From Diaporthe sp. PMI_573 (taxonomy: Eukaryota > Ascomycota > Sordariomycetes > Diaporthales > Diaporthaceae): DNA of 64,000 nucleotides. The position numbers were made by a program, and so were the translations under genes. Positions 963 through 34,277 of the stretch are shown piece by piece. The notes under the pieces were generated by a model, which was not told the DNA's origin, searched no databases, and was given only the letters and a program-made list of their open reading frames with translations. Where the stretch lies: NCBI GenBank assembly GCA_021399435.1, contig JAJTUP010000028.1, positions 186,001 through 250,000 of the forward strand. Reading direction: 5' to 3'. The first letter of the stretch is position 1; every line of letters begins with the position of its first letter.

Positions 963-1760
963 ACTGCCGTCTACACCGTGATCCCGCCCGAGCACGTCGC
1001 CTCGCTCACGGTCCAGCCATGCCGTGTCCCCGAGGTGTCCTCCTCGTCCCTCTCGGGCCTTCCAGCGCTGTGTCTGCACCTCTCCATGAGCGAGCCCACC
1101 ACCATCGTGGGCCCGGCGGCGGCGCCTTACTTTTCGCCCAAGCCCAAGACTGCAGCCGACTCGCGGCTGTTGACTTCCTTGGATCTGCTCGCGCGGCTGC
1201 ACTCACTCGTCCTGTACATCAAGGAGGACGCCTTTCCAGACTCGGCCCCGCAGGTACTGAGTAACATCAGCACCTTCAAGTCCAGCCCGAAACATGCCGA
1301 CCTCAAGTGCCTCTACGAGGGGCGTGGAGGAAGGCCAGTCTGTTGGCCGGCACTCGAAATGCACATCCGGGCCCCGACCTCAACCACCGACAGCCCGCCT
1401 GCGTACAACGACGCCGAGGTCGAGATGCAGCTGGGACCCCATTTGAGCAAGCGACAGCGACGAGGAGAAGGACTAGATTCAAAGAACAACGCAGAGGCAG
1501 GTGGTAGCAGTAGCAGCATTGTCGATCGCCTCCTTGACAGAGTTGGCCGGATAGAAGCCCGACTTACACACATGGAGACTGAACTCCGGGAGGCAAAGGC
1601 CCACGACAAGGCATCTGATGAGCTCGACGACCTGTCGGCTCACATGGATGATTACGTTGTCGTAAAGATGGACGACCACATGGACTTTGTCAAAATTGAT
1701 CTTCAAGACTTTGTAGAAGATAGACTTGCCGATGTCGAGGACAGAGTTATGGACCGAGTC
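963..1760 (+). pseudogene. Gene Y: conserved-looking fungal gene with coiled coil, 3' end removed by hAT insertion
   Basis: The frame is open from a plausible splice acceptor at 962 and reads without interruption into the hAT end at 1761, where the last host residues are DRVMDRVQ. The N-terminal half is Ser/Pro/Ala-rich. The middle is a globular segment (LLTSLDLLARLHSLVLYIKE). Residues from about 190 on form a charged heptad-like stretch (VGRIEARLTHMETELREA), then an acidic HMDD/DFV tail. I do not recognise the family. The true start must lie in an upstream exon, because the first in-frame codon here is GTG, not ATG. After 1760 the frame runs about 95 nt into transposon sequence and stops. 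Codon use is GC-rich, unlike the transposon. The missing 3' half is not visible in the window. Confidence 0.5.
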
Positions 1761-2590
1761 CAGGGTGGGGAATCAATCCACGACTTCCACGGTATTGATC
1801 AATATGTTGACTTCAATCCACGTCAACGTCAATCCACGAGACATGTTGTTACGTAATCAATCCATCCACGGTTGAGGGCTCGTGGATTGAGATGTGGATT
1901 GACGTGGACGCTAGTCAGGGGTATGGGTACCCTGATATATTTCGTTAATATTTGCTATGCATATCTGCGCAAACACTAACAGATCTAATCAGGCAAAACA
2001 TCCGACGCGTTGTGACACGTCGCGACGCGTTATGACGCCTGAACCCAAATGTCTCCTCCTTTACTCGATTCCTACGGTCGGTGAACCTTCAATTTCGAGA
2101 TGGCGGACTTACCTCTTGACCCTGAACTACCGACCAACAACGAGGGGCATGCCGAGGTCCCTCGACGTTCTCTGGATCCAGACCCCGAAGTCCGCCAGCC
2201 TTCTACTTGGGCACCAACAAGTGATGAGGAGCAGAGAATCTTCCGCGTCTGGAAGGGATTCACGCTGGCCGAGCGCAGCAAAGATACCCTATCATGGGTA
2301 TGGAACTACGGGGTCGAGATTCAATCCAAAACATCCCGACGATGGATCTGTATGCCATGTGTGCGCCAGAAGACCCCCACGCCACAGTCATACGAATCCA
2401 AAGGCACCCAAAACGCTGAACTCCACCTCTGGAAAGCTCACGGCTACTGGGATCCATCAGGACGACGATCAACACCGTCAGAGAAGAAAGGAGGCAAGAG
2501 GGTTCTTGCTTCCATTTCGGACTTCATGAGCCTCAAACGTTCCGATCCAAAGGAGCAAGCGCTGGCCAATAGCTTGATCAAACGCTTCGA

Positions 2591-2598
2591 TCGAGGAG
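2591..2598 (+). repeat. Target-site duplication of the nested hAT
   Basis: TCGAGGAG at 2591-2598 is repeated exactly at 5623-5630, bracketing the nested element. The length is 8 bp, the hAT value. Removing the element and one copy restores the codons for the host transposase sequence FDRGEFQKL, the position where related transposases in this window have FDRDHFQQL or FDKKHFQRL. Confidence 0.95.
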
Positions 2599-5500
2599 CA
2601 AGGCTCGGACCCACTACACTGCAAATCCACGTGGACCACAAATAAGTGGCCCATCTCTATTACATCCACTTGTCGGCCCTCAGATTACGTAATAATCCAC
2701 TACACTTGGACCTGAAAGTGGATGTAATGGAGTGGATTTAGGTGGATTTAGGTACAGGGGGATATTCCCTGACCCTGTACGGTTCATAGTACTTATTTTT
2801 GTATATAGTTGCCTATTAAATCGAGGTACCTGGACCCAAGTTAGCCGAGGTCGATCACCCCTACAGCTAATCTTATAACATTATACGAGAAACTACCCCT
2901 ATTGAGCGCGTTTTCTACAGATTTCCTGCTTTGTTTTTGCCAAAAACTTTTTTTTTTGACGATGTCAGCCAGCCAGCCAGGCCAACCAGGCCAGCAGCAG
3001 CAGCTCGAAGACCGTCTTTTTCGCCATTTCAGAGGCTGGAATTGGTCAGAACGCGCTCGTGATACTAGCTCTTGGCTGTGGGACTTTGGCTATGATATTC
3101 AACGTCATGGCTTACGCAAATGGGCTTGCAAGTACTGTATCCTCGGAAATCGTCCCATTATCGCGAGTTTTACCTCTTCAGGTCTCCAGAACGCGGCAAA
3201 TCATCTATGGCGTGAGCACAAAACACCAGCACCAGAGGGAGAGAAAAGGAGCACAGCACAGCTCAAATCCGAAGGCGCACTGAAATCGAACCAGCCAACT
3301 ATTGCATCTGTTTTGAAACTGGACGTCAACAAGCCTACGGAACAGAATATCGCGAATAGCTTCATCTCACGCTTTGATAAGCAACACTTTCAGCGTATGC
3401 TAGTCGAGCTAATCGTCAGTAGCAACCAGTCATTTTCCTTCGCCGAGAACCCCATCCTCCGAGAAATCTTCGACTATTTGAGTCCCTCCGTTTCGATCCA
3501 ACGCGCCAACTTGAGTGCCAGGGCTGTCCGATATAAGATCATTCAAGAGTATAACCGCCAAGCAGAGGGTTATCGAGGTGCTGAGGAACTCCCCTGGAGC
3601 GCTTCATATCTCATTTGATGGCTGGACGTCTCGAAATAAGCTTGCCCTCTACGGTATTGCTTGTTTTTTCAGAGATGAGAAGAATCGGCCATGCAAAATC
3701 ATGATCGGGGTTCCAGAGGCTCATCGTCACTTCGGCTCAACGATCGGTGGGGAGGTTCTCGACGTCCTACACACTCTTGGCGTGGGCCCAGAGAAGATTG
3801 GCTATTTCACGCTCGACAATGCTGAAAACAACGATACTGCAATGGAGGTCATAGGTGCTGAACTTGGGTTCGATGGCCGACTACGCCGAGGACGCTGTAT
3901 TGGCCACACAATTAACTTGTCAGCCAAGGCGCTCTTATTTGGCAAAAACACCGACGCGTTCGAGCACCAATTATCAGGCGCAGAAGCGTTATCTGATGCT
4001 GAATACGCTCGATGGCGCAAAAGAGGACCAGTTGGCAAGTTACACAATATCGTAGTTGATGTGCGTATTAGCCATCGGCTGATTTACTTATTCAAGGAGG
4101 TCCAGAGGGTAAGCGGTTTTACTAAATCCTGTTCGTCTCATACTAATTCCATATATCTAACAGGACGAAATTAATCGCGCCACCACCCTTAAACTCCGAT
4201 CGAAGAAACCAGTCAAGCTAATTATCGATAACGACACGCGTTGGCTGTCACAACTCTACATGATCCGCAGGGCTCTACGGTTGAAAATCTCTATCGAACT
4301 CCTACTGATCAAGTATAAGGCGCAATGGGAGGACGAAAATCGGTCTAAAAAGACTGGCCAAGTGACACAAGCCAAGTTGGCGAGAAAACCACGCATCCTC
4401 CGAGACGAGAATCAGCTAACGGACAGAGACTGGGAGGTTCTTTACCATTTGGATATTCTGACTGTTTTTGAGACCGTGGTGAAGACGCTTGAGGGTGATG
4501 GACACACCCGCAGGCGTAAGCAAGGCTGGACTGGCTCCTATGGCAATATCTGGGACGTGGTGCTTGGCTATGAGTTGCTGCTTAACACACTGGAAGAATA
4601 TAAGCAGCTTGCTGCTGACTTTCCTGATCCAGAGCACTTCCGCATCGGAATCAACCTTGCTTGGGATAAGCTGGATGAATATTATCGGCGGCTGGACGAG
4701 ACGCCCATCTACTATACGGCTATGGCGCTCCATCCAGCCTATCGTTGGGACTGGTTTGATGAAACGTGGGCTCATGAGCCTAGTTGGGTTGGAGGGGCAA
4801 AAGGGGTGGTCGCCGGCGTCTGGCTGTCCGGTTACGCTCATCTCGGGGTTGGGGCCAGCAGCGGCAGGGGCGACGACGAGCCTCCAGCAAAAAAAGTTCG
4901 GGTTTTCAACCCCTTCGAGAAGAACAGCCGTCTGCCAAGCTCAACACCAGCCTCCGCAGCAGCTATTGTTGGTGACGAGTACCAAGCGTGGCAGACGGAT
5001 CGTGACGTCAGCGACGGCAACGTTCGTGATCCAATTGGTTACTGGATCACTAAGCAAAGCAGATATCCTCGATTATCCAGGATGGCCTTGGACTTCCTGA
5101 CAATCCAGCCGATGTCAGCCGAGTGTGAGAGGTTATTTTCAGCTGCTGGCAAGATGGTCTCGGGGTTGCGTGCAAACCTAGATGCTGAGATTATCGCCAT
5201 TTGTCAGGTTTTACGCTCTTGGTACCGTGCTGGCATTATCAAGGACCTGGATCCATTGCTTAAGTCGCACCTTGAAAGTAAGCTGGATGGCGGTTGTGGG
5301 ACTCTAGGCGACGACGAGCTGGCGCTTGCTGAGTCAAAATGGCTATTGGAGGGCGAGGATAGCGCCAGCGAGGTTGACGATTCATCACAGCAGCAGCAGG
5401 CTGAAGAGTTAGTGTCAACCTCTGAAAGTGAGGCTGAATAGGCGTCGACGAGGTTGTGAATAGCCTCAAAAATCCACTTATAAATCCACTTATAAATCCA

Positions 5501-5622
5501 CGTGTGTACATCCATTCCACTCCGGTCGAATATGTGCTACATCCACTACGTAATTGCTAAAAAATCGTACATCCACTCTACTTGGTCCAAAAGTGGAGTG
5601 GATGTAGTGGTTCCGACCCTTG
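2599..5622 (+). mobile_element. Inner hAT transposon nested in the outer transposase gene, left copy
   Basis: The element is 3,024 bp. The left end is CAAGGCTCGGACCCACTACA, and the right end read inward from 5622 is CAAGGGTCGGAACCACTACA. Exact 8-bp target duplications flank it. Subterminal repeats are of the type ACATCCACT / AAATCCAC (2630-2760 and 5470-5605), differing from the TCAATCCACG of the host element. It carries one hAT transposase gene in the same orientation as the outer gene. The CAAGG ends resemble those of the truncated hAT beginning at 19197. Confidence 0.94.
2962..5441 (+). pseudogene. Inner hAT transposase, one frameshift and one intron
   Basis: ATG 2962 starts MSASQPGQ. A BED-like finger follows (WLWDFGYDIQ, WACKYCI, LWREH), then SFISRFDKQHFQ. 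Near 3560 the frame shifts by one base: IIQEYNRQ continues as KQRVIEVLRNSPG in the next frame. The core then reads HISFDGWTSRN, IGYFTLDNAENNDTAM and GRCIGHTINLSAKALLFG. A 55-bp intron at 4109-4163 (GTAAGC, branch TACTAAT, CAG) joins in phase 0 to DEINRATTLKLRSKK, DNDTRWLSQLYM and the C-terminal AECERLFSAAG. An acidic Q-rich tail ends at 5441. The same frameshift is present in the right-arm copy, so it predates the duplication. Without it the protein would be about 800 residues. Confidence 0.88.
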
Positions 5623-7695
5623 TCGAGGAGAGTTCCAGAAGCTCATTGTCAACTGGATAGTCGAAAGCCAGCAATCGTTCAAGCAGGTTGAACACCCTCG
5701 ATTGCAACAGATTTTCGAATACCTCAATCCGGCGGTCAAGGTTACGAGTGCGCACATTACGGCGAAGACTGTGCACAGACTGGCGGTTCAACAATTCGAG
5801 CGATATCATGGCACGGTCCAGCAGGTCTTGAAGAGGTCGCCGGGTCAGATCCACATTGCCTTTGACGGCGCAAGGACTAGGAATCGTCACGCGTTATATG
5901 GCGTGACGGCTGTCTTCAGAGACCACGAGAATCAGCTCCAAAAAGTTGTGCTCGGCATTCCGGAGCTGGTAGAACGACATACTGGCGAGAACATTGCCGC
6001 CGAGATCCTCGAGATCATTAGGTCGTTTAGCATCGAGGACAAGGTCGGTTACTTCACTCTCGATAATGCAGCAAATAATGAAACGGCAATGTCAGAGATT
6101 GCAGAAGAGCTGAAGTTCGACCCGGTTCAACGACGAGTTCGATGCATGGGACACATCCTCAACCTTGTTGTTAAATCCCTTCTCTTTGGGAAGGATGTTG
6201 ATGCGTTTGAGAAATCTCTCGTCGAGGAGGAGCCTTTGGCGAGAGCAACCCATGACCAGTGGATGCGGAAGGGTCCTGTCGGGAAAGCGCATAACTTCGT
6301 CGTTTGGGTCCATCGGGCCGACTTACTGACTCAGTTGCTTCGTCAACTGCAACGAGACTCATTTGCAGCTTCTGGCGAGCCTGAAAGTGGAAAGCAACGG
6401 CCAGTTGACGTTGTCCTTGACAACGATACTAGATGGTTGTCCCAATACTACATGATAAAACGAATGCTTCGCTTGCAGCCCGTCTACGAAGAATTCATCG
6501 CCAAAGCCAAGCGGCTATTCCGAGACGCTCGGAAAGGTGAGGGTGGACAGAAGCTTCCTCCCTGCCTCGAGGAGTCGAGCTTCATCAACGAGAGCGATTG
6601 GGCGGTGCTGAGGACATTTGATGAGATACTCTCTGATTTCCACGTCGTTGTGCAAGTACTTCAGGGAGACGGACAGTCGCGATGTCGATCGTCTGGAGTT
6701 AGGGAAGCTTTTGGTTCCATGACTGATGTGCTGGAGGCGTTCGAATTTCTACTTGGGAGGCTCGAGGACGCAAAATCGCGTATTGAGAGGCATCCTGAAC
6801 CGGAGCAATTCTGTGTCAATATCAACCTTGGCTGGAAGAAGCTCGATAAATATTACAATACTTTGAGGGACTCGCCAGCATACTACGCCGCCGCCGCCTT
6901 GCATCCTAGCCTACGATGGGACTATTTCGACGAGGTTTGGGGTCAACAGCATCCAGGTTGGGTCGATGAAGCGAAGGAAATCGTACAACGTCTTTGGGAT
7001 ACGGAATACAGAGACCTACAGATCACAGTCACCTCTCCTGAAGGTCCGGTTGTGAAGAGGCGAAAGACGACTTTGTCCTCCTTTGATCGGTATCGCAACC
7101 GATACCGTCAAAGCCAACCGTCCGCTGCTCAAGCGGATGAATATATCCGCTGGCAGGCCAGTGTGTCTGGGAGCGACAAGGACGTCGCAGACCCAGTTGA
7201 GTATTGGGTCCTCAAGAGGTTTGAGTATCCAAGGCTATCTCGAATGGCTCTTGACGTCATGACAGTGCCGGCCATGAGCTCGGAGTGCGAGAGACTGTTC
7301 TCCGCCACCGGGTTGATGGTCACGCCCCTCCGAAACCGCTTAGACGCCGGGACGATTGGACTAATCCAAACGCTGCGATCTTGGTTACGCGCAGGCATTA
7401 TCGAAGATGTCGATAGCATACTGCTTGACGATACAGCGTTACAGGAGGCTGTTGAACGGGCTGGTTTGGAGGAGCGCCAGGAGTAAGGCAATAGAAAGTT
7501 TCGGCGACGGGTTCCCGAATTGCCCGATTAGGAAATCCGAGTTAATGTGACAGGGGTCTTCCACGGGTTCAATATTATGGACATCAATCCACAGATGGCT
7601 TCGTGGACGTCAATCCACGAGCACTTTGCTGAGTAAGCCGTCAATTCCATCCACAAAGTCGGATATTGACGTGGATGGATTGATTCCCTACCCTG

Positions 7696-7703
7696 CTGGT
7701 CCG
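7696..7703 (+). repeat. Split target-site duplication, copy 1
   Basis: CTGGTCCG lies directly outside the right terminus of the outer hAT. Its identical partner is the reverse complement of 33977-33984, directly outside the terminus of the right arm, 26 kb away. The eight bases adjoining the left terminus (1753-1760, ACCGAGTC) do not match. Confidence 0.92.
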
Positions 7704-8413
7704 AGCTGAGCAGGTTCATGAAGATCGCCCGCCGCATGCGCTGGAAGCTCCCCTTCCTGGGCCAGGCCTACCGCGCCGCGACGGACCGCGACCTCAACAC
7801 GCTCGAGGACCGCGCCGAGGCCGAGCTCATGTTCAAGCTCGACTTCTTCGAGTACTACATGCTCCTCGAGCGCGCCCTGGTACATCTTATGGGCGTCTTT
7901 GGCGTCAAGATCACGGGCGCGTTCACAGCTGCCTCGAGGTCGGGCACCACGGGGAGAACCACAAATGGGAACGGGACAGCGGGGCAGCACCAGAGCGACC
8001 ACCGCTTCCACGCCAACGTCCTCGAAGCCCTAGACGACCCGCGAAACCCCCTCCACCCAGTCCTCGGCGCAGGCGACGCCCGCTACGCCCTCGCCCGCGC
8101 CAAGGAATTGCGAAACCGGTGGAAGAACGCCGACGAGCCCGACTCGATAACTGCCATCACCGCCGCCGGTGCCACGATCACGAAATTGACCGCGGCGCGC
8201 CCGCTCGAGGACTATGATCTGGAGCGGATCCTCGAGTCCATCTTCGGTGGTCTCGAGGGCGCATACGTCATTGCAGAGCGGTATGTGGCCGGCGTGCGGG
8301 CGCTTGCTTCCGAGCGCGGGTCCGCTGCACCAGGGTCTGCGTTGGATAATGGTGTTGCTGAGGAGGCGCAGTGGGAGTTTATGGTTGATGCTATGGACTG
8401 GGAGGCTGTGTGA
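7704..8413 (+). pseudogene. Gene X, 3' part (separated from its 5' part by inversion)
   Basis: The frame is open from the hAT junction and continues through FMKIARRMRWKLPFLGQ to the stop at 8411-8413. ATG 7718 is merely internal. Including one target copy, the 5' part at 33977-34277 (minus strand, 301 nt) plus these 710 nt give exactly 337 codons, crossing the junction as TPWSELSRFMKIARR. The visible part is mostly helical: RDLNTLEDRAEAELMFKLDFFEYYMLLERALVHLMGVFGV, a Gly/Thr/Asn linker, then LEALDDPRNPLHPVLGAGDARYALARAKELRNRW. I do not recognise the family; a conserved fungal protein is likely. Codon use is strongly GC-ending, like an old host gene. Confidence 0.8.
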
Positions 8414-8664
8414 GCTAACTATGGCCACGTGACGCTGCTCGATGGCGGGCCGTTGGTATTGTGTATCTGCATTGGGAGGTGTTGTGTTTGTTTGCGTCGA
8501 GTTTCCCCATCAGGACAGGCATGGGTCGGGTAGGAGTATGGCGTTCAATCGGGAATTGAGGAAACTTTGGGTTGGGCTTGACATTGGCGTCTAGATCGAT
8601 ACCCTGCGCACCGTGATGAAGCACACATAGCATCTGTTCTTCACTACTACATAGAATCGCACAG

Positions 8665-9051
8665 GTTGCCAATGCCATGACTATGGTCCTCATCCTGGCC
8701 ATGGCGGTTAGTTTCGGCATCCAGTCTTGGATTGAGGGTGGCGTCGTTGCCGGCGTCATCCTCCTCAACATCGTCGTCGGCTTCTTCCAAGAATATTCTG
8801 CTGCCAGGATGATGGATTCCCTCCGGTCACTGAGCTCTCCCACTGCCCAAGTCATCCGCGACGGACAGTCTCAGACCGTAGCTTCTTCCGATCTGGTCCC
8901 CGGAGACTTGGTTGAGCTCAAGACGGGCGACACCATCCCAGCCGATATTCGGTAAGTCCGGGCGCATGCTTGAATGATCATACGCTTGCTAACAGGTCAT
9001 CAACAGCGTCTTCGAGGCCGTCAATTTCGAGACAGACGAAGCTCTCCTGAC
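8665..9051 (+). pseudogene. ENA-type P-type ATPase (Na+/K+ exporting) fragment
   Basis: Exon 8665-8951 follows a CACAG acceptor and encodes VANAMTMVLILAMAV, SWIEGGVVAGVILLNIVVGF, the cytoplasmic SSPTAQVIRDGQSQ and VPGDLVELKTGDTIPAD. A 56-bp intron (8952-9007) leads to VFEAVNFETDEALLTG, where the sequence enters a MITE at 9052. These are the second transmembrane region and actuator domain of fungal P2D (ENA) ATPases, plasma-membrane pumps for Na+ or K+. The cytosolic N-terminus, the TGES catalytic loop and the whole phosphorylation half (DKTGT) are absent from this window. It is a remnant broken on both sides; gene X ends about 250 bp upstream. Confidence 0.82.
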
Positions 9052-9200
9052 AGGGTGGTCATCAATTCAACTCAATCGCCCCTCCGGTGGACAAAAGATC
9101 ACTATGTGCACCGTGCGAGCGTGCGCGTGCCGTAAAACAGACCGTGCCACCCCTGTTTCAACTCAATCGACGCCCCAGATTGAATTGATGACCACCCTGT
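9052..9200. mobile_element. hAT-type MITE, 149 bp
   Basis: The left end CAGGGTGGTCATCAATTCAA and the right end (inward from 9200) are the same 20 bases. Inside are further TCAACTCAATC-type repeats in both orientations and no coding capacity. CAGGG ends and subterminal repeats fit a non-autonomous hAT. The flanking octamers TCTCCTGA and TGGCTGGG do not match, so the two flanks were probably not neighbours before insertion. Confidence 0.82.
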
Positions 9201-9394
9201 GGCTGGGGCGCAGAAGTACGAGGGTTACCTGGTTGTTGACGTTCTTGCGAGCAGAAGTGAGTTCAAGTACCATTGAAGCGAGCTGGTGAGTTCTTGTGTT
9301 CCCTAAAGATGACCGCGAGCGGGAAGAAAGGGACCATAAGGAATCAGAAAGGTCGCAGCAACGTAAGCGGAGGCGGCGAGACTCCGACTACTAT
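9201..9394 (+). other. Unidentified coding-like remnant right of the MITE
   Basis: Reading + from 9211 gives AQKYEGYLVVDVLASRSEF and then a stop. From about 9296 a second frame gives a basic Arg/Asp/Glu stretch (DRERE, QQRKRRRRDSDYY). Neither continues the ATPase. They look like exon pieces of other genes, without a recognisable family. Confidence 0.3.
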
Positions 9395-10135
9395 TCAGTG
9401 CATGGTAAGGACGCTGGCCTTGCAGATATTGTGGCAAAACATGCTGGAGCTGTTGTCGATGCGGTGACTAATGAGGGGCGTAACGACAAGCGCAACGCGC
9501 ATGTAATTTTGCTGTAGAGGAAGCCCGAACGTGTTCTCGTTGAGCGCAGCGTGGCTATCGTGATTGAACATAACTCCGCATTCGTCCCAGCTGAAAAAGA
9601 ATGGCCGGCAGCTCGTCCTCATCTTGGCGCTGCACTCAATGGCAACACTAGCGATGGATTGCAGACTGGAGATGACGTTTCGCTGCTCAAGCCCGTCCCG
9701 CATGAAAGGACCGGCAATGATTGCCTCGACCTGTTGATTCATCCGGAAGTCGGGGAACCCCACGACACCAGCGTCGGAAAGAGTTCGTTTGATTATGCGG
9801 CGCTGGTCAATCAAGCCGTTATCCAACTCAGGAAGGGTGGGTAAGCTCGGGATTGAGTCTGAATGTGCGTCCAGGCCCAGCCAAAACCTAGGATTGAGTA
9901 TTTCTTTCTGGATGTACTGGACAATCATGCGGGCAACAAACGACACACAGTGGATGGGCGATCCTAGCATGAATAGCGCGTGTTTTTCAGCTCCCCTTTC
10001 GTTTTCACTGTGGCACCTTGCCGTACGGAGGACGTACTGCCACATGCCGGGACTCTTTGTTAGAGCCCTCTCATTAATTCTGGGGCAGCTGACTTTAACA
10101 AAATCCTTCGACCAGCTCATGATAATGTTGAACAA
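9395..10135 (-). CDS. Uncharacterised fungal protein, paralogue of the fragment at 47568-47980
   Basis: The 246-residue frame contains KHALFMLGSPIHCVSF, MIVQYIQKEILNPRFWLGL, and later FPDFRMNQQVEAIIAGPFMRD. The 47.5-kb fragment has the matching QHAIFMLNSPLHRAQF, LLLQYIYQEMLCPKSWLGF and YRNFRIGQHADALMSIARPLMRE. This shared spacing supports real coding sequence and a dispersed family. I know no function; the SSMFCHNICKASVLTMH tail may be non-native. A first exon may lie upstream around 10140-10390, so the 5' boundary is uncertain. It lies beside a solo LTR. Confidence 0.55.
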   Translation of the reverse strand: MFNIIMSWSKDFVKVSCPRINERALTKSPGMWQYVLRTARCHSENERGAEKHALFMLGSPIHCVSFVARMIVQYIQKEILNPRFWLGLDAHSDSIPSLPTLPELDNGLIDQRRIIKRTLSDAGVVGFPDFRMNQQVEAIIAGPFMRDGLEQRNVISSLQSIASVAIECSAKMRTSCRPFFFSWDECGVMFNHDSHAALNENTFGLPLQQNYMRVALVVTPLISHRIDNSSSMFCHNICKASVLTMH

Positions 10136-10393
10136 GTTCTCAAATATTGCTCTGAACTTTTCTACCTGATCCGGGTTATCTCTTTGTTCGCGGACTAGAT
10201 GATTGAGGCGGCTGGGATTGATATCGTCATGATGTCGTGCCTGGCCGAGCGGTAGGTTTGGCGTACTGTAGACGTGGTGCTGCTCAAGTGGTCTATAAAT
10301 AGAGGTGCCTATGTTAACGTTATAGCTAGAAAAAATCCCGGATCGCAGAGTTTACGCGCCTGTACAAGTTTGGGCGTCGGACAGTATTGCTAA

Positions 10394-10691
10394 TGTCGAG
10401 AGGTCAGGGGAAGATGCTGGGCAAGGTTTTGCTTGAGGGCAGATCAGGATCTGAACATTCCGTGCTAAGTTACGATTGATACCTAACTACATTGTGATTC
10501 CAGTGCGTCTAGCCACCCATCTTATAACCTGGCCTGCCCATCCCTCATGGATCTCGATGCACGCTGGCCTGAGCGAGGCTCAGCCCTGACTTGGGCGCCA
10601 TATGGGCCTGAGCGGTGCTGCGGTGCCTTTCGCTGATACTACGGTGCCCTTCACCGGGCCTCCGACGGGCCCGAAGTGCTGCCTTCCAACA
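10394..10691. mobile_element. Solo LTR of a Copia-type retrotransposon
   Basis: The 298-bp unit begins TGTCGAGAGG and ends CCTTCCAACA (TG...CA ends) and is flanked by a perfect 5-bp duplication GCTAA at 10389-10393 and 10692-10696. It shares long stretches with the LTR at 59045-59301, e.g. GGGGAAGATGCTGGGCAA and GAGGGCAGATCAGGATCTGA. No internal retrotransposon sequence is present, so it is the product of LTR-LTR recombination. Confidence 0.92.
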
Positions 10692-10696
10692 GCTAA

Positions 10697-10830
10697 TGAT
10701 ATGGCAATAAAATAGTAAATTGCAATACAACCAATATGGTATGGACTTTTTCATATTGCGACAATATGATATGAGGTTCTTTATATTGTGGCAATACAAT
10801 ATGAGGATGTCCACATTGGCAACATATTAC
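10697..10830. repeat. AT-rich imperfect tandem repeat
   Basis: Imperfect units of about 35-50 bp share CAATATGATATGAGG / CAATACAATATGAGG and TATTG motifs. The tract lies just outside the solo LTR's right-hand target duplication. No coding signal. Confidence 0.5.
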
Positions 10831-13847: not shown

Positions 13848-13959
13848 ATCCCCCTAATCAAAACTTCCTCTTTCCAGATTCTTTTCTATAATTTTAAGAC
13901 TTCATTTCCAACCCCCCCCTCCGGGGGACCGTTCTGGATGGAAAATATCGACCCGCCTC

Positions 13960-14330: not shown

Positions 14331-14421
14331 GGGTAAAAAGTGACAATGTCTAGGGTAACTCTGTGATGGAATTGAGCTATCCTCATCATATGTGGACTTT
14401 TTTAACTTACATTCCTTACCA

Positions 14422-17880: not shown

Positions 17881-17888
17881 TCAGAAAT

Positions 17889-24371: not shown

Positions 24372-26785
24372 CCAAACAACTCAACCAACTCAACGGACGA
24401 CCTATATTGAGTGAATTGGCTTAGTAATCGCCGACCTCTCGTTGAGTTGATCAACTGAACGCTTTCGTTGAATGGATTGACGTTGAGTTGGTGTGAGGGA
24501 ACGATCATGTGACTTTCATACTTTATGAATAGTCTCACTTTATGAATATTGTGTAAATAGCTTAAGTCGGAGTTTTCCTTAGGCGTCTCTTTCTTTACTC
24601 GTAAACAATCACTTTACCCAAGTCACACTCGACCTCGTTCGTGCTCTTGTCCTGTCACAGTTGGCCTAGTTGACGAGATATTCGCGACATGCTCCACCAG
24701 TTATTCCCACCCATTCTCCTCTTCTGCCAGCTCTCCCGCTCGGCCGAGAAATGACGCCATTGACTCTCTTGCGCCCGCCTCGCTTCTGGCGCTGCTCTCG
24801 ACCTCGATTTGCGTGGGAACGAACAGAGGATCCAGGTCGTCGATTATCTTGGCTTGTAGCCACGAACGCAGCACTAGACACATCCCGATTATATCGACTT
24901 CGAGGCGGCTGCGCAGGGGAGTCACCAATCGACCTGCGGCAGAAAAGAGCCTCTCGCACTCGGCTGACATCGGCTGGATCGTGAGGAAATCAAGAGCCAT
25001 TCGACAGAGGCGGGGATATTGAGCTCGGTTATCCTGCCAATATGCGCTGGGGTCTCGAATATGGGTGTCTGTTGGAACCCAGCTTTGTTGCCACGCCTCG
25101 TACTCGTCCCTCGGGGATTCAGGAGTCGCAGAAGACCTCATCCTCGCTGGCGTAGTCGTAGGCGTCGATAACCGGCTTGATGGCTCGTATCGTGACTGCT
25201 CGCAGTATTCCTCGAAGGCATTTTGGTACTTCCTTCGCCGTTTAGCAACGGGCTCATTTCCTGGGCTCAATACCACCTCGAGGTTGCGATATTCGGTCTC
25301 CCATACCTCCTGAACCATCTCTTTCGCAGTTGCGATCCAATCCGGATGTTTTCCCCAGTGTTCTTCGAACCAACCCCATCGATACGCAGGGTGGAGAGCC
25401 AACGCCGCGTAATATATTGGTGTCTCGTCGAGAATTGTGTAATATTTGTTGAGCTTCTGCCACCCTAGGTTGATGTTGATCCTGAAGTGTTCGGGATCAG
25501 GATAATCCGCCGCGACTGCCTTGTACTCCTCCAGTTTTGCCATTAGGAATTCGAAGCCTTGGATGACATCCCAGATATTTCCGTACGAGCCGACCCACCC
25601 TCTCTTCCGTTTGCGTTGAATACCGTCTCCCTCAAGGGTTTTGACGGTGACCTCGTAGGATCCAAGAATCGTGGCGAGGTGTTCGAGGACGTCCCAGTCC
25701 TTGTCTGAAAGCTGGTTTTCGGATAGGCAAATTCGCGGTTGAACAGCCGACCTCCTCATCAGGCCCGTCTTTTTCGACCTGTTGTCCTGCTCCCAAGCTT
25801 GTTTGTGTTTAAGAATCATCACATCGAGGTAAGGACGGAGTTTGATCGCGCGGCGGATCATGTAGAGCTGGGACAGCCATCTGGTATCGTTATCGACGAC
25901 GATGTTCAGAGGCTTCCTCGCTCGAACTCTCGGATCGATAGATTGGTCCATATCAGCCTGCTGAACACCTCGAAGAAGGTAACTCAGCACATCAGATCTG
26001 TCGATGTCAACAACGAGGTTGTGGAGCTTCCCGACTGGCCCTCTCCTCCTCCAAAGATCGTGTTCAGTTTCAGACAACGCTGCTGCGCCGGAGAGCTGAT
26101 TCTCAAATGCCTCTGGATTGGAGCCAAAAAGCAATGCTTTGGCAGAGAGGTTGAGTATGTGGCCAAAGCATCGACCTCTGCGCTTGCGTCCATCGAAGCC
26201 CAACTCTCCTCCGATCACAGCCATTGCTGAATCGTTGTTTTCGGCGTTATCAAGCGTGAAATACCCGATCTTATTCTTTATACCATATGAATCGATAATC
26301 TCGAGGACTTCTGCTGCAATATTTGTGCCAGAATGGCGAGTAGAGACCTCGGGTACTCCAAGGACGATTTTGCGGGGCTTGTTTTTCTCGTCTTGGAAGA
26401 AGCACATAATCCCATATAACGCGTGCCGATTTCCGGACCTCCAGCCATCAAAAGAGACGTGAATTAGGCCGGGAGAGCTCTGGAGGACCTCCATAACCTT
26501 CGTCTTGTGCTGTTCGTATGATGCCACGATTTTCCTGCGAATAGATGTTGCGGAAAGATTGGCGTCACAGAGCTTCACGCAAGGGTTCAGATATGCGAAA
26601 ATCTTCCTGAGCTTGTCGTGTTCTGCCGTTTCGAACGAGAGGTTGGCCTCCACGATCCATTCCATTAGAAGTCGTTGGAAATGCTTCTTGTCGAAGTTCT
26701 TGATGAAGCCATTCGCAATTGCTTGTTCTCTAGGCTTATTGGTATCAAGCTTCATCAACTCGGCGAGGTCTGGATTGCCCTCTGG
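24372..26785 (-). mobile_element. hAT-4 element, 5' truncated, inserted at the patatin gene
   Basis: The 3' end (left in the window) carries repeated CAACTCAAC / GTTGAGTTG units at 24375-24500, different again from the other hAT families here. The minus-strand transposase is long and open but lacks the leader and BED finger. At about 26785 it abuts patatin coding sequence. No matching terminal repeat or target duplication is found on the right, so the 5' part was lost by deletion or recombination rather than intact insertion. Confidence 0.75.
24701..26758 (-). pseudogene. hAT-4 transposase, catalytic core intact, BED finger missing
   Basis: 685 codons without a stop. Order: NKPREQAIANGFIKNFDKKHFQ, LIHVSFDGWRSGNRHALYG (first Asp), IGYFTLDNAENNDSAM (second Asp), RCFGHILNLSAKALLFG, VDNDTRWLSQLYM, VGSYGNIWDVIQGFEFLM, and the C-terminal SAECERLFSAAGRLV with the catalytic Glu. 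The N-terminal 150 or so residues, including the DNA-binding finger and initiator Met, are replaced by patatin sequence. It is the least decayed catalytic core in the window and may be recent. The in-frame TTG/ATG at the 5' end is not a native start. Confidence 0.85.
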
Positions 26786-27935
26786 TTGTCAACCAAGTAG
26801 TTCCTTGTGTGAGCGGCTATCATGCTCGCTTTCTGGTAGTCTGATAATGTGACATCATCCAAACCACGGTCCACGTTGAATCTGCAGTACTGGCCTCGAT
26901 CTTCATATTTGCCATCAAGTCTTGTTGCAACTTTTGTTGACTCTGCAGCCATTTCCTTTAATGCATTCAAGATAGCCAACCTTGAATCCTGAATTGTAAC
27001 AACTCTTCCTAGCCCTGTGCCAATGCTGAGGATACGCAGCTGGTCGTGTCCAGGGAATAGCTTTTCTGCTTCTTCAATCAGGATCTCTGCCGGGTTATTA
27101 TACCCAAATCCTGCATCGATAAACTCGATCTTGTCGCGTCCGAGTTGGATGGATTTGAAGAAGGTTGTCGCAGCTGAGGTTGCGCGGGCGACCTGCCAGA
27201 TGCAGCAGTCTCTAAAGGCAACATCTGTATCATATGTCTTGAAGAGCATAGGACGAGCATCTATATTTGCCTTTGTAATAGCTAGAACGACACTAAGTTA
27301 GAAGACATTAGCATTAGTCTCCCCCACTATACTACCCCCCCCCCCTTTAGGACTTACGTCTTGGTGCAAGTCTTGTCCCGAAATAGCAAATCGTTATGCG
27401 TGCAAGTTGTCTCGCTCTGTGGATCTTCGCTTCGCTTTGCAGTGCACTCTGGGTCGGTACAATTTTCCCGCACGACTTGCTTGATCGCCTTCTCGAGGGC
27501 AGTGGCTGAGAAGGCGCCTTTTGGTTCCGCAGGTAGTGGAAAGATCCGCCGTTTTGGCGTGAAGGCGGCCTGACCAACTTTATCATATACCTCTATACAC
27601 TCGTCTACTGTCATTCGCAGTCGTCCAAGCATGATCGCAATGATTCTATCAGGTTCATTAGCAGGTAAAACAGATGGGACGACGACATTCATACCCTCCA
27701 GTGCTAGTGCCGCCAATTAAATCGAAGTAGTCACATGGTCGAGGCACTTGGTTCAAGCCCTGGGACTCGCGAATACGCTCCATGATATTCTCCAGGATGA
27801 GGAGGCTGGACTTGCCACGGATACCCCCGCCATCTATCAATAGTCAGTTGCTATTCTCAGATGTCGAGTTGGGATGGATACCAAGCGAGAGGATACTGGG
27901 CGGCCGACCCAGACCACTAATGGCATACCTATCTG
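26786..27935 (-). pseudogene. Patatin-like phospholipase, C-terminus cut by hAT-4
   Basis: Exons (minus): upstream of 27882, 27833-27695, 27645-27358, 27292 to about 26786. Introns of 48, 49 and 65 bp with GT-AG ends restore the family sequence: LSLDGGGIRG (oxyanion hole), GTSTGG (nucleophile Ser, GXSXG), IIAIMLGRLRMTVDECI, then TYDTDVAFRDC, WQVARATSAATTFF and FIDAGFGYNNP with the catalytic Asp of the dyad. Such proteins hydrolyse acyl esters of lipids; in fungi they also form N-terminal domains of STAND/NLR-like proteins. The Ser-Asp dyad is present. After YLVDNQRAIQ the sequence changes to hAT, so any C-terminal repeat or STAND domain is lost. No in-frame ATG is seen in the first exon, so the start is unresolved. 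Confidence 0.8.
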
Positions 27936-28128
27936 CTTTCGTGCTGACATAACCGAATGAGACAGATCTGATAGCTATAAATACAGACAGTTGCTATCTC
28001 CTAGTTCTACCACCATACGAGATTCTTTACTAAGTAATATACATTTCATTGACCACGCTAATCACCATACCAACCTCTCTCACTTCTGTCAAAGCCTGCA
28101 GCCCTGCGAATCTTTCGAGTAATTAACA
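27936..28128. other. Divergent upstream region between patatin and MPGS genes
   Basis: About 190 bp separate the two oppositely oriented genes. GCTATAAATAC at 27972 is a TATA-like box for the rightward gene, followed by pyrimidine-rich sequence before ATG 28129. Confidence 0.45.
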
Positions 28129-28840
28129 ATGCGCATCACTCCGCCTTCCTCCACTATACACGTGGGCAACGTCCAGGTGCTAGGTGTTCAGCAAGTCTTG
28201 GAGTATGCTGCCAATACATCAGGCCGAAGCGATCAAGGAAATCAGCAATGAGGTCATGCTTTCTCGCCCGAAGAGCTTGGTATAATACAGAGCAGGACGG
28301 CGATTGTTGTCCCATGCAAAGACGAAGACTTGGATCAGGTACGGAATGTATGGCGTGCCATCCCAGCTACCAGCCTGATCATTTCTGTCTCGGCAACACA
28401 AGAACATGACTACACTCGTGAGAAGGAGGCAATGGACGACTTCTGGCGCGATACGGGACGGACCGGTATCAGCATCTATCAACAAGACCGCCAGCTCGCT
28501 AAGGCTCTCAAGGAAATCGGATTGGAAAGTCTTATGGACGACAATGGAAATATCTACAAAGGCAAGGGCGAGGCCCTCATTATTGGTATCCTACTCGCAG
28601 CTATTTCCCCAGCGCCAGCCGACAAGACCAACTGTTCTACCCGACTTCATACTCCTCACGCCGGCGCCATAGACTACAATCCTGAGCAAGAAGAAGGCAA
28701 TACGAAGACCGAGTGTCCCCAAGTAGCTCATGACAACATCTATAACGGGTATTATAAATATATCGGGTTTATCAATGCAGACAATCTTGCCCCTGGCAGT
28801 GTTACAGAGTACTGCAATGCATTCAGTGCTGGATTTTGCG
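28129..28840 (+). pseudogene. Mannosyl-3-phosphoglycerate synthase (GT55), broken
   Basis: ATG 28129 starts MRITPPSSTIHVGNVQVLGV. A TGA at 28249-28251 interrupts the frame; the same frame continues with FSPEELGIIQSRTAIVVPCKDEDLDQV, LIISVSATQ, NGNIYKGKGEALIIGILLA and YIGFINADNLAPGSVTEYCNAFSAGF, then enters the hAT arm at 28840. Family landmarks are VPCKDE, GKGEAxIxGI and the D-x-D-type metal site; here FINADN replaces the usual FIDADN, a change expected to weaken catalysis. The enzyme makes mannosyl-3-phosphoglycerate from GDP-mannose and 3-phosphoglycerate, a cytosolic step to the compatible solute mannosylglycerate. The stop, the D-to-N change and the loss of the C-terminus make it a pseudogene. 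Confidence 0.82.
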
Positions 28841-30114
28841 CGGCGGCGGCGTAGTATGCTGGCGAGTCCCTCAAAGTATTGTAATATTTATCGAGCTTCT
28901 TCCAGCCAAGGTTGATATTGACACAGAATTGCTCCGGTTCAGGATGCCTCTCAATACGCGATTTTGCGTCCTCGAGCCTCCCAAGTAGAAATTCGAACGC
29001 CTCCAGCACATCAGTCATGGAACCAAAAGCTTCCCTAACTCCAGACGATCGACATCGCGACTGTCCGTCTCCCTGAAGTACTTGCACAACGACGTGGAAA
29101 TCAGAGAGTATCTCATCAAATGTCCTCAGCACCGCCCAATCGCTCTCGTTGATGAAGCTCGACTCCTCGAGGCAGGGAGGAAGCTTCTGTCCACCCTCAC
29201 CTTTCCGAGCGTCTCGGAATAGCCGCTTGGCTTTGGCGATGAATTCTTCGTAGACGGGCTGCAAGCGAAGCATTCGTTTTATCATGTAGTATTGGGACAA
29301 CCATCTAGTATCGTTGTCAAGGACAACGTCAACTGGCCGTTGCTTTCCACTTTCAGGCTCGCCAGAAGCTGCAAATGAGTCTCGTTGCAGTTGACGAAGC
29401 AACTGAGTCAGTAAGTCGGCCCGATGGACCCAAACGACGAAGTTATGCGCTTTCCCGACAGGACCCTTCCGCATCCACTGGTCATGGGTTGCTCTCGCCA
29501 AAGGCTCCTCCTCGACGAGAGATTTCTCAAACGCATCAACATCCTTCCCAAAGAGAAGGGATTTAACAACAAGGTTGAGGATGTGTCCCATGCATCGAAC
29601 TCGTCGTTGAACCGGGTCGAACTTCAGCTCTTCTGCAATCTCTGACATTGCCGTTTCATTATTTGCTGCATTATCGAGAGTGAAGTAACCGACCTTGTCC
29701 TCGATGCTAAACGACCTAATGATCTCGAGGATCTCGGCGGCAATGTTCTCGCCAGTATGTCGTTCTACCAGCTCCGGAATGCCGAGCACAACTTTTTGGA
29801 GCTGATTCTCGTGGTCTCTGAAGACAGCCGTCACGCCATATAACGCGTGACGATTCCTAGTCCTTGCGCCGTCAAAGGCAATGTGGATCTGACCCGGCGA
29901 CCTCTTCAAGACCTGCTGGACCGTGCCATGATATCGCTCGAATTGTTGAACCGCCAGTCTGTGCACAGTCTTCGCCGTAATGTGCGCACTCGTAACCTTG
30001 ACCGCCGGATTGAGGTATTCGAAAATCTGTTGCAATCGAGGGTGTTCAACCTGCTTGAACGATTGCTGGCTTTCGACTATCCAGTTGACAATGAGCTTCT
30101 GGAACTCTCCTCGA

Positions 30115-33100
30115 CAAGGGTCGGAACCACTACATCCACTCCACTTTTGGACCAAGTAGAGTGGATGTACGATTTTTTAGCAATTACGTAGTGGATGTAG
30201 CACATATTCGACCGGAGTGGAATGGATGTACACACGTGGATTTATAAGTGGATTTATAAGTGGATTTTTGAGGCTATTCACAACCTCGTCGACGCCTATT
30301 CAGCCTCACTTTCAGAGGTTGACACTAACTCTTCAGCCTGCTGCTGCTGTGATGAATCGTCAACCTCGCTGGCGCTATCCTCGCCCTCCAATAGCCATTT
30401 TGACTCAGCAAGCGCCAGCTCGTCGTCGCCTAGAGTCCCACAACCGCCATCCAGCTTACTTTCAAGGTGCGACTTAAGCAATGGATCCAGGTCCTTGATA
30501 ATGCCAGCACGGTACCAAGAGCGTAAAACCTGACAAATGGCGATAATCTCAGCATCTAGGTTTGCACGCAACCCCGAGACCATCTTGCCAGCAGCTGAAA
30601 ATAACCTCTCACACTCGGCTGACATCGGCTGGATTGTCAGGAAGTCCAAGGCCATCCTGGATAATCGAGGATATCTGCTTTGCTTAGTGATCCAGTAACC
30701 AATTGGATCACGAACGTTGCCGTCGCTGACGTCACGATCCGTCTGCCACGCTTGGTACTCGTCACCAACAATAGCTGCTGCGGAGGCTGGTGTTGAGCTT
30801 GGCAGACGGCTGTTCTTCTCGAAGGGGTTGAAAACCCGAACTTTTTTTGCTGGAGGCTCGTCGTCGCCCCTGCCGCTGCTGGCCCCAACCCCGAGATGAG
30901 CGTAACCGGACAGCCAGACGCCGGCGACCACCCCTTTTGCCCCTCCAACCCAACTAGGCTCATGAGCCCACGTTTCATCAAACCAGTCCCAACGATAGGC
31001 TGGATGGAGCGCCATAGCCGTATAGTAGATGGGCGTCTCGTCCAGCCGCCGATAATATTCATCCAGCTTATCCCAAGCAAGGTTGATTCCGATGCGGAAG
31101 TGCTCTGGATCAGGAAAGTCAGCAGCAAGCTGCTTATATTCTTCCAGTGTGTTAAGCAGCAACTCATAGCCAAGCACCACGTCCCAGATATTGCCATAGG
31201 AGCCAGTCCAGCCTTGCTTACGCCTGCGGGTGTGTCCATCACCCTCAAGCGTCTTCACCACGGTCTCAAAAACAGTCAGAATATCCAAATGGTAAAGAAC
31301 CTCCCAGTCTCTGTCCGTTAGCTGATTCTCGTCTCGGAGGATGCGTGGTTTTCTCGCCAACTTGGCTTGTGTCACTTGGCCAGTCTTTTTAGACCGATTT
31401 TCGTCCTCCCATTGCGCCTTATACTTGATCAGTAGGAGTTCGATAGAGATTTTCAACCGTAGAGCCCTGCGGATCATGTAGAGTTGTGACAGCCAACGCG
31501 TGTCGTTATCGATAATTAGCTTGACTGGTTTCTTCGATCGGAGTTTAAGGGTGGTGGCGCGATTAATTTCGTCCTGTTAGATATATGGAATTAGTATGAG
31601 ACGAACAGGATTTAGTAAAACCGCTTACCCTCTGGACCTCCTTGAATAAGTAAATCAGCCGATGGCTAATACGCACATCAACTACGATATTGTGTAACTT
31701 GCCAACTGGTCCTCTTTTGCGCCATCGAGCGTATTCAGCATCAGATAACGCTTCTGCGCCTGATAATTGGTGCTCGAACGCGTCGGTGTTTTTGCCAAAT
31801 AAGAGCGCCTTGGCTGACAAGTTAATTGTGTGGCCAATACAGCGTCCTCGGCGTAGTCGGCCATCGAACCCAAGTTCAGCACCTATGACCTCCATTGCAG
31901 TATCGTTGTTTTCAGCATTGTCGAGCGTGAAATAGCCAATCTTCTCTGGGCCCACGCCAAGAGTGTGTAGGACGTCGAGAACCTCCCCACCGATCGTTGA
32001 GCCGAAGTGACGATGAGCCTCTGGAACCCCGATCATGATTTTGCATGGCCGATTCTTCTCATCTCTGAAAAAACAAGCAATACCGTAGAGGGCAAGCTTA
32101 TTTCGAGACGTCCAGCCATCAAATGAGATATGAAGCGCTCCAGGGGAGTTCCTCAGCACCTCGATAACCCTCTGCTTGGCGGTTATACTCTTGAATGATC
32201 TTATATCGGACAGCCCTGGCACTCAAGTTGGCGCGTTGGATCGAAACGGAGGGACTCAAATAGTCGAAGATTTCTCGGAGGATGGGGTTCTCGGCGAAGG
32301 AAAATGACTGGTTGCTACTGACGATTAGCTCGACTAGCATACGCTGAAAGTGTTGCTTATCAAAGCGTGAGATGAAGCTATTCGCGATATTCTGTTCCGT
32401 AGGCTTGTTGACGTCCAGTTTCAAAACAGATGCAATAGTTGGCTGGTTCGATTTCAGTGCGCCTTCGGATTTGAGCTGTGCTGTGCTCCTTTTCTCTCCC
32501 TCTGGTGCTGGTGTTTTGTGCTCACGCCATAGATGATTTGCCGCGTTCTGGAGACCTGAAGAGGTAAAACTCGCGATAATGGGACGATTTCCGAGGATAC
32601 AGTACTTGCAAGCCCATTTGCGTAAGCCATGACGTTGAATATCATAGCCAAAGTCCCACAGCCAAGAGCTAGTATCACGAGCGCGTTCTGACCAATTCCA
32701 GCCTCTGAAATGGCGAAAAAGACGGTCTTCGAGCTGCTGCTGCTGGCCTGGTTGGCCTGGCTGGCTGGCTGACATCGTCAAAAAAAAAAGTTTTTGGCAA
32801 AAACAAAGCAGGAAATCTGTAGAAAACGCGCTCAATAGGGGTAGTTTCTCGTATAATGTTATAAGATTAGCTGTAGGGGTGATCGACCTCGGCTAACTTG
32901 GGTCCAGGTACCTCGATTTAATAGGCAACTATATACAAAAATAAGTACTATGAACCGTACAGGGTCAGGGAATATCCCCCTGTACCTAAATCCACCTAAA
33001 TCCACTCCATTACATCCACTTTCAGGTCCAAGTGTAGTGGATTATTACGTAATCTGAGGGCCGACAAGTGGATGTAATAGAGATGGGCCACTTATTTGTG

Positions 33101-33138
33101 GTCCACGTGGATTTGCAGTGTAGTGGGTCCGAGCCTTG
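30115..33138 (-). mobile_element. Inner hAT transposon, right copy
   Basis: Complete copy of the 3,024-bp nested element, in the same position within its host, flanked by the same 8-bp duplication (30107-30114 and 33139-33146). It is therefore a product of duplicating the composite, not an independent insertion. Confidence 0.94.
30296..32776 (-). pseudogene. Inner hAT transposase, right copy
   Basis: Same structure as the left copy: start ATG at 32776, frameshift near 32177, 55-bp intron at 31628-31574, stop at 30296. The shared frameshift shows that the element was already defective when the arms became separate, or that gene conversion has homogenised them. Confidence 0.88.
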
Positions 33139-33976
33139 CTCCTCGATCGAAGCGTTTGATCAAGCTATTGGCCAGCGCTTGCTCCTTTGGATCGGAACGT
33201 TTGAGGCTCATGAAGTCCGAAATGGAAGCAAGAACCCTCTTGCCTCCTTTCTTCTCTGACGGTGTTGATCGTCGTCCTGATGGATCCCAGTAGCCGTGAG
33301 CTTTCCAGAGGTGGAGTTCAGCGTTTTGGGTGCCTTTGGATTCGTATGACTGTGGCGTGGGGGTCTTCTGGCGCACACATGGCATACAGATCCATCGTCG
33401 GGATGTTTTGGATTGAATCTCGACCCCGTAGTTCCATACCCATGATAGGGTATCTTTGCTGCGCTCGGCCAGCGTGAATCCCTTCCAGACGCGGAAGATT
33501 CTCTGCTCCTCATCACTTGTTGGTGCCCAAGTAGAAGGCTGGCGGACTTCGGGGTCTGGATCCAGAGAACGTCGAGGGACCTCGGCATGCCCCTCGTTGT
33601 TGGTCGGTAGTTCAGGGTCAAGAGGTAAGTCCGCCATCTCGAAATTGAAGGTTCACCGACCGTAGGAATCGAGTAAAGGAGGAGACATTTGGGTTCAGGC
33701 GTCATAACGCGTCGCGACGTGTCACAACGCGTCGGATGTTTTGCCTGATTAGATCTGTTAGTGTTTGCGCAGATATGCATAGCAAATATTAACGAAATAT
33801 ATCAGGGTACCCATACCCCTGACTAGCGTCCACGTCAATCCACATCTCAATCCACGAGCCCTCAACCGTGGATGGATTGATTACGTAACAACATGTCTCG
33901 TGGATTGACGTTGACGTGGATTGAAGTCAACATATTGATCAATACCGTGGAAGTCGTGGATTGATTCCCCATCCTG

Positions 33977-33984
33977 CGGACCAG
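33977..33984 (-). repeat. Split target-site duplication, copy 2
   Basis: CGGACCAG on the + strand, i.e. CTGGTCCG on the minus strand, directly adjoining the right-arm terminus. Identical to 7696-7703. Confidence 0.92.
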
Positions 33985-34277
33985 GGCGTCGGGATGCGGG
34001 TCAGGGCGGAGGCGTCGGCTTCGTATGGGTTGCCGGTGTATGTGATGCTGCTGCTATTGGAGGTGGTTGCTAATGTGCTTGTCGGTGGGGGCGGGCGGGT
34101 GCTTATTGTTGATGTTGATGTTGTCGTTGTGGTGTGTATCGCGGTCGAGGTGGAGGAGGTAGATGAGGAGGAGGCGGGGTGCCTGAACTTGTTGGAGGTC
34201 CAGTAGTACGGCGGGCGGCCGGTGTTGATGGGCGCCCACGTAGAGCTGGCGAGGCCTTTCTCGCCTGGCCCGACCAT
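33985..34277 (-). pseudogene. Gene X, 5' part
   Basis: ATG 34277 starts MVGPGEKGLASSTWAPI. The segment is very Ser/Thr-rich (SSSSTSSTSTAI, TTTTTSTSTIS) and Pro-rich, then YTGNPYEADASALTRIPTPWS at the junction. Such a low-complexity leader is normal for a fungal N-terminus and may be disordered. After the junction the frame enters the transposon and stops at 33939. Joined to 7704-8413 it forms a 336-residue protein in one frame, with the joint at TPWS-ELSRF. The promoter presumably lies in 34278-34560, so this stub may still be transcribed into the hAT. Confidence 0.8.

What the first reader, a model, noticed from the sequence alone, without database searches (positions are those of the whole stretch)
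1753..34277. Split 8-bp target duplication and split host gene record an inversion between two hAT copies
The hAT right end at 7695 is followed by CTGGTCCG; the right-arm terminus at 33976 is followed (read outward) by the same octamer reversed. The true partner of 1753-1760 is missing. Gene X 5' (34277-33977, minus) and 3' (7704-8413, plus) join at exactly this octamer into one 337-codon frame. The simplest history: composite hAT A inserted in gene X, truncated copy B lay inverted in gene Y about 25 kb away, and crossing-over between them inverted the interval. This is a base-level record of transposon-driven chromosome inversion.
Basis: seen in the sequence. Interest (0 to 1): 0.88.

Follow-up and report, generated by a model that had tools for sequence, protein, structure and literature searches.

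The report
Fungal gene split by transposon-linked inversion
In a fungus, two near-identical copies of a jumping gene sit at the ends of a flipped stretch of chromosome, and a host gene cut in half at the flip still fits together to the letter; such flips are a known kind of event, and which known mechanism made this one (or whether the assembly shows the true orientation) cannot be told from the sequence alone.

Summary
A composite hAT transposon (a 3,024-bp hAT nested in a 2.9-kb hAT) lies at 1761-7695; a copy lacking its right end lies inverted at 28840-33976; the arms differ at 1 of 5,137 bases. CTGGTCCG follows the right end of one copy and precedes the left end of the other, and the two pieces of gene X join there into a 336-aa frame. 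Three gene X copies in the same genome are uninterrupted at this join and carry the octamer once; named Diaporthe proteins run across it. Four gene Y copies show the matching empty site for 1753-1760. Of 461 cross-comparisons of hAT flanks, only the window pair matches.

The mechanism is not settled. The layout fits crossing-over between inverted copies, and equally the published reversed-ends transposition signature of maize Ac (8-bp duplication at both breakpoints, one complete and one fractured element). The discriminating end is deleted: the second copy breaks off inside a mannosyl-3-phosphoglycerate synthase-like gene. Assembly error is a real rival: contig C168 repeats about 19 kb of the interval, differing by indels only in the first parts read, and starts 99 bp inside the transposon. 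A new, well-documented member of a known kind.

The parts
921..1760 (+). 5' part of dispersed gene Y, cut at the hAT left end
   Evidence: open frame 921-1856; near-identical relatives on C172, C211, C176 and a frame-broken one on C158 align up to exactly 1760 and go on without the hAT
1753..1760 (+). octamer ACCGAGTC, target site of the left end in gene Y; its partner was not found
   Evidence: single copy at the empty site in L057, L058, L059, L060, one difference in L061; partner search
1761..7695 (+). composite hAT A, 5,935 bp, both termini present
   Evidence: termini CAGGGTGGGG / CCCTACCCTG; Dimer_Tnp_hAT PF05699 in the outer and the nested element's protein; C-terminal match of the outer protein to Hermes transposase
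2599..5622 (+). nested hAT (3,024 bp) inside the outer hAT, with 8-bp duplication TCGAGGAG at 2591-2598 and 5623-5630
   Evidence: uninterrupted outer copies overlap by these 8 bases; termini and octamers
7696..7703 (+). octamer CTGGTCCG, first half of the split duplication
7704..8413 (+). 3' part of gene X
   Evidence: joins 33977-34277 in one frame; contiguous in L044, L045 and, up to window 8131, L046
24365..26788 (-). another hAT-like element (hAT-D), truncated at about 26788; contig C168 leaves the window sequence inside it
   Evidence: ORF 24701-26788; C168 alignments
28129..28839 (+). 5' part of a mannosyl-3-phosphoglycerate synthase-like gene (PF09488), cut by the truncated hAT; one search lists an in-frame stop within its first matched stretch (intron or decay, not resolved)
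28840..33976 (-). truncated composite hAT B: left end at 33976, right 798 bp missing
30115..33138 (-). nested hAT in the right arm, same site and duplication (30107-30114 / 33139-33146)
   Evidence: the left nested-in-outer junction is found only at these two places in the genome
33977..33984 (-). octamer CTGGTCCG on the minus strand, second half of the split duplication
33977..34277 (-). 5' part of gene X
   Evidence: L044 homology runs 34907-33977 and then 7696-8419, the two pieces sharing only the octamer

Best explanation
A composite hAT element was inserted in gene X with an 8-bp duplication. A second copy of the same composite lay nearby in opposite orientation, with its left end in gene Y and its right end lost by a deletion reaching into an MPGS-like gene. 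Homologous crossing-over between the two 5.1-kb arms inverted the 22-32 kb between the exchange points, splitting gene X and its duplication across the two breakpoints. Shown: the structure, both empty sites, the shared origin of the arms, and the deletion junction. Inferred: that the second copy arose by ordinary transposition, that crossing-over was the step, and that the assembled orientation is real.
For: Split octamer with a continuous frame and empty sites in the same genome. Of the 120 listed relatives (of 479 found), 79 align across the join and 57 of those without a gap in residues 90-110; at least one of the 79, P0013, is from this genome itself. Arms differ at 1 of 5,137 bases, while the closest other outer copy read in full, L036, is 99.41% identical to the outer part and the closest nested copies read, L011 and L012, are 99.70%. 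14 of 18 two-ended outer copies outside the window have an exact 8-bp duplication, so the family normally leaves one. Identical inverted repeats 22 kb apart are good recombination substrates (established knowledge).
Against: No un-inverted chromosome was seen. This composite (nested element at this site) was found nowhere else in the genome, so independent mobility of the composite, which this history needs, is unsupported. The one end (right end of B with ACCGAGTC) that would favour this over reversed-ends transposition is missing. The assembly repeats the interval in C168.
Confidence: 0.47

Rival explanations
1. Alternative transposition. The hAT transposase paired the right end of one composite with the left end of another copy (a fractured neighbour, or the sister-chromatid copy of the same element) and inserted both into gene X. 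One reaction inverted the segment and made the split 8-bp duplication; the segment between the elements, with the rest of gene Y and the ACCGAGTC partner, was lost or later deleted.
For: The structure matches the published signature: 8-bp duplication at both inversion breakpoints, one whole and one fractured element, loss of the fragment between them (PMC8225341 section 15 and passages). The only two places of this composite in the genome are the two arms, as expected if the second copy arose in the same event (sister-chromatid version). An uninterrupted outer copy (L036) has a 789-codon open frame, so a transposase source may exist.
Against: Rarer than standard transposition even where elements are active (PMC8225341 section 15). 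The sister-chromatid version predicts right end + ACCGAGTC on the inner side of the right arm, which is deleted. No fungal hAT case was seen in the titles and abstract starts listed by six paper searches (one search listed 15 of 30).
Confidence: 0.25
2. Assembly error or unfixed orientation. The genome (or most nuclei) has gene X carrying an ordinary composite hAT with both octamers, and the assembler joined the interval in the wrong orientation through the identical 5.1-kb arms.
For: C168 bases 1 to about 19,178 follow window 7597-26766 (C168 13203-14000 not compared). In 2,313 and 2,000 bases compared base by base, and the first 982 bases of L091, there are indels but no substitutions, and C168 starts 99 bp inside the hAT right end, as if paths branched at this element. 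C168 then carries a different hAT-D copy whose outer flank octamer does not match the near one, so a repeat-guided misjoin or a further rearrangement exists here.
Against: C139 (885 kb) passes through both arms, which assemblers usually do only with spanning reads (general knowledge). C168's flaw is at hAT-D and not shown to be at the arms. No reads were available.
Confidence: 0.23
3. No inversion: the X pieces are two unrelated or separately duplicated fragments and the octamer is chance.
For: Gene X is a dispersed gene with other copies in the genome (C183, C150, part on C157).
Against: L044 is continuous over 34907-33977 and 7696-8419 at 99.2-99.4% with exactly the 8-base overlap; chance of the octamer about 2e-5.
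Confidence: 0.02

Closest known systems
Ac/fAc reversed-ends transposition inversions in maize (PMC8225341: section 15 whole and other passages seen)
   Same: hAT elements at both inversion breakpoints, 8-bp duplication shared by the two breakpoints, one complete and one fractured element, loss of adjoining donor DNA
   Different: Here the event is ancestral and unobserved, in a fungus; the progenitor arrangement is unknown and crossing-over fits equally
Inversions by ectopic recombination between inverted transposons, e.g. Galileo in Drosophila (abstract starts and 53 listings; summary in PMC8225341 section 15)
   Same: Inverted near-identical copies at the breakpoints; exchanged target-site duplications
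   Different: After such an event both elements should show exchanged duplications; here the second pair cannot be seen because one end is deleted
impala rearrangements in Fusarium (Hua-Van et al. 2002, known only through one sentence in PMC8225341)
   Same: Non-standard transposition rearranging a fungal genome
   Different: impala is a Tc1/mariner element (recalled); this is hAT

Membership tests
hAT superfamily (outer and nested element) | hAT C-terminal dimerisation domain in the encoded protein | tested here: met
   PF05699 E 3.3e-16 (outer) and 2e-15 (nested); the outer protein matches four PDB transposase sequences, two named Hermes, at 6e-14 to 3e-13, over about residues 512-608 only
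hAT superfamily (outer and nested element) | 8-bp target-site duplication | tested here: met
   outer family: 14 of 18 two-ended copies outside the window exact; nested family: 6 of 14 full copies exact, two of which (L018, L019) share one octamer, plus the copy in the composite
hAT superfamily (outer and nested element) | short terminal inverted repeats | tested here: met
   CAGGGT[A/G]GGGAATCAATC / GATTGATTCCCTACCCTG in the outer copies read; the C65 copy and the right arm differ at one base; nested CAAGGCTCGGACC / GGTTCCGACCCTTG
Inversion by crossing-over between inverted copies | homologous inverted copies at both breakpoints | tested here: met
Inversion by crossing-over between inverted copies | both pairs of duplications exchanged (ACCGAGTC also at the inner end of the right arm) | tested here: inconclusive
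   that end is deleted at 28839/28840; no partner found elsewhere in the genome
Reversed-ends / sister-chromatid transposition | one 8-bp duplication shared by the two inversion breakpoints at transposon ends | tested here: met
   also predicted by crossing-over after an ordinary insertion in gene X
Reversed-ends / sister-chromatid transposition | no earlier ordinary insertion at the target (gene X) before the inversion | not testable with these tools
   needs sister strains; no relatives of this genome are held (message)

The most novel reading that the evidence does not exclude
A natural fossil of alternative transposition by a fungal hAT: one composite element, through its sister-chromatid or fractured neighbour copy, made the inversion, the split target duplication and (in the sister-chromatid version) its own second copy in a single transposase reaction.
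Probability: 0.25. Interest if true: 0.6.

Novelty: new member of a known kind. Interest (0 to 1): 0.36.

Why it matters
It is a base-level case of a transposon-bounded inversion in a filamentous fungus, with both empty sites present in the same genome. If strains show that gene X never carried a plain insertion before the flip, it would be a natural fungal hAT example of a rearrangement route shown in maize. If reads show the flip to be an assembly error, it is a warning that a split target duplication can be made by an assembler at inverted repeats. The direct cost to the fungus may be small, since full-length gene X copies exist elsewhere in the genome (L044, L045).

Tried and rejected
Chance match of the octamer: rejected. 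Separate-gene reading of the X pieces: rejected by L044, L045, L046 and by named Diaporthe proteins. The SNP at terminus base 5 as a tracer of two different parent elements: the A was seen only in the right arm among the left ends read, so it tells nothing. Looking for the other half of the cut MPGS-like gene or of gene Y inside the window: PF09488 gave no further match there and the gene Y continuation was not found as an exact 12-mer or 19-mer. Using C168 as the un-inverted chromosome: it leaves the window sequence inside hAT-D, and window 26790-28845 matched C168 only at 87% over its first 1,130 bases, far away in the contig, and over one 62-base piece, so C168 does not show the un-inverted order. 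DNA searches with queries of 10 kb or more did not list even the window itself, so their absences mean nothing. A search for the isolate by name in papers gave nothing.

Full report
Setting. The window is 186001-250000 of contig C139 (885 kb) of an 83.7-Mb, 217-contig genome. Two contigs of that genome have the lengths (564,982 and 447,598) of contigs that carry proteins named Diaporthe sp. PMI_573, so the window is most likely from that fungus. This is an inference from lengths. A search for the isolate's name in the paper library gave nothing.

The observation. Arms 1761-6897 and 28840-33976 are inverted copies of 5,137 bp with a single difference, at base 5 of the terminus. The left copy runs on to a complete right end at 7695; the right copy stops at 28840. 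CTGGTCCG stands at 7696-7703 and, reversed, at 33977-33984. Joined on one octamer, the gene X pieces read through 336 codons and a stop.

Gene X was one gene. In the same genome L044 (C183) matches window 34907-33977 and 7696-8419 contiguously at 99.2% and 99.4%, with an overlap of exactly eight bases; L045 (C150, DNA 89-91%) and L046 (C157, up to window 8131) cross the join in the same way. Of the best 120 of 479 homologues, 79 align across the join (residues 88-112) and 57 of these have no gap in residues 90-110; 22 have a gap there, and the best local alignment of the other 41 does not span the join. At least one of the 79 (P0013) comes from this genome itself. The named Diaporthe proteins P0002, P0005, P0010 and P0015 read PTPWSELSRFMKIAR at this point.

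Gene Y. 1753-1760 (ACCGAGTC) is the end of the window's piece of a gene found in several further copies. L057, L058, L059 and L060 read GGACCGAGTC then AGGTCTGCG where the window reads GGACCGAGTC then the hAT; L061 has one difference in the octamer. The continuation is not in the window as an exact 12-mer. Right end + ACCGAGTC was found in the genome only with mismatches, at three places: one with 1 mismatch that is another copy's left flank read backwards, one with 3 that is another copy with its own duplication, and one with 3 that was not examined.

The element. The outer hAT is a family of about 2.9 kb. A nested 3,024-bp hAT sits in it with duplication TCGAGGAG. The left nested-in-outer junction, searched with up to 3 mismatches, occurs exactly twice in the genome, in the two arms, so the arms are copies of one composite. 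A further outer copy, on C10, holds a nested-family element at a different site. Other outer copies read in full are 0.59% or more different from the outer part (L036 99.41%, L037 99.28%). An uninterrupted copy (L036) holds a 789-codon open frame. Flank census: of 18 two-ended outer copies outside the window, 14 have identical octamers; C9:106k, L028 (C200), L030 (C176) and C155 do not. Five more right flanks come from copies without a usable left end. In all 461 cross-comparisons of left and right flanks between different copies, only the window pair matches, also with one mismatch allowed. One search scored 40 of 432 candidates, so more copies may exist.

The truncated end. At 28839/28840 copy B meets the 5' part of a PF09488 gene. 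The C202 relative (88-89%) continues past this point where the window turns into the hAT. With C202 as stand-in for the lost sequence, the printed junction shows no microhomology. The break lies one base from the edge of the 8-bp site at which a nested-family hAT sits in the C10 outer copy. This could be a footprint of a lost insertion or a coincidence in a GCC run.

Mechanism. Crossing-over between inverted copies, and alternative transposition, both put one 8-bp target on the inner side of one element and the outer side of the other. PMC8225341 (section 15 whole; other passages) describes this for maize Ac/fAc: matching 8-bp duplications at both breakpoints, a fractured second element, loss of the fragment in between; it contrasts this with ectopic recombination, which makes no new duplication but exchanges the old ones. 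PMC3744419 (passages only) reports tandem duplications at hAT elements in the maize genome with the features predicted by reversed-ends transposition and describes sister-chromatid transposition. The geometry for a single element on sister chromatids is my own derivation: it gives the observed order plus a complete right end with ACCGAGTC at the inner end of the right arm, followed here by the deletion. The discriminating end is the one that is gone. I favour crossing-over because ordinary local transposition is commoner than alternative transposition and identical inverted arms recombine readily (general knowledge). The absence of any other copy of this composite leans the other way.

Assembly. 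C168 bases 1 to about 19,178 follow window 7597-26766; 13203-14000 of C168 was not compared, and 2314-13202 only as summary rows of 100% rounded identity. In the 2,313 and 2,000 bases compared base by base there are no substitutions, only indels, one of them inside the frame 22624-23376. Substitutions begin inside hAT-D at about 24.58 kb (7 in the 1,500 bases of L091, 8 in the 1,678 aligned bases of L067). C168 then continues in a longer hAT-D whose far flank (CTGGTGAG) does not match the near one (ACCCACAT). So part of the interval is either recently duplicated or assembled twice, with a repeat-guided join. I could not check reads. I therefore give the assembly rival 0.23.

Literature on fungal hAT inversions: six searches showed none in the titles and abstract starts they listed (one search listed 15 of 30 papers); only PMC8225341 and PMC3744419 were opened.

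Noticed in passing
window 7597-26766 against G000:C168:1-19178: About 19 kb of the interval is repeated at the end of another contig, starting 99 bp inside the hAT right end, with indels only in the first parts read and substitutions only once inside hAT-D: a duplication or the same locus assembled twice.
   Followed up: partly
window 6891-6898 and 28840; L023 1494-1501 and 4522-4529: Copy B is truncated one base from the edge of the GCC-rich 8-bp site at which a nested-family hAT is inserted in another outer copy (C10): a hot spot, the footprint of a lost insertion, or coincidence.
   Followed up: partly
window 28129-28839: Fragment of a mannosyl-3-phosphoglycerate synthase-like gene (PF09488); longer copies on C136, C202 and C1 of the same genome.
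   Followed up: partly
L028 (C200), L030 (C176), L038 (C155), C9:103881-106769: Four other two-ended outer hAT copies have non-matching octamers, so further rearrangements at this family may exist; no partner was found among the flanks read.
   Followed up: partly
window 24365-26788 and 26790-27919: hAT-D is truncated against a piece with a weak patatin match (below Pfam's cut-off) that has several relatives at 78-93% elsewhere in the genome: another broken transposon junction inside the inverted interval.
   Followed up: no
L031, L033, L034, L035: Four outer-family copies lose similarity before query base 268 but share the same 60 bases there, a sub-family with its own 5' part.
   Followed up: no
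window 1761-6897: No sign of repeat-induced point mutation in the arms (TA/AT 0.67; (CA+TG)/(AC+GT) 1.21; thresholds recalled), and many hAT copies are 98-100% identical.
   Followed up: partly
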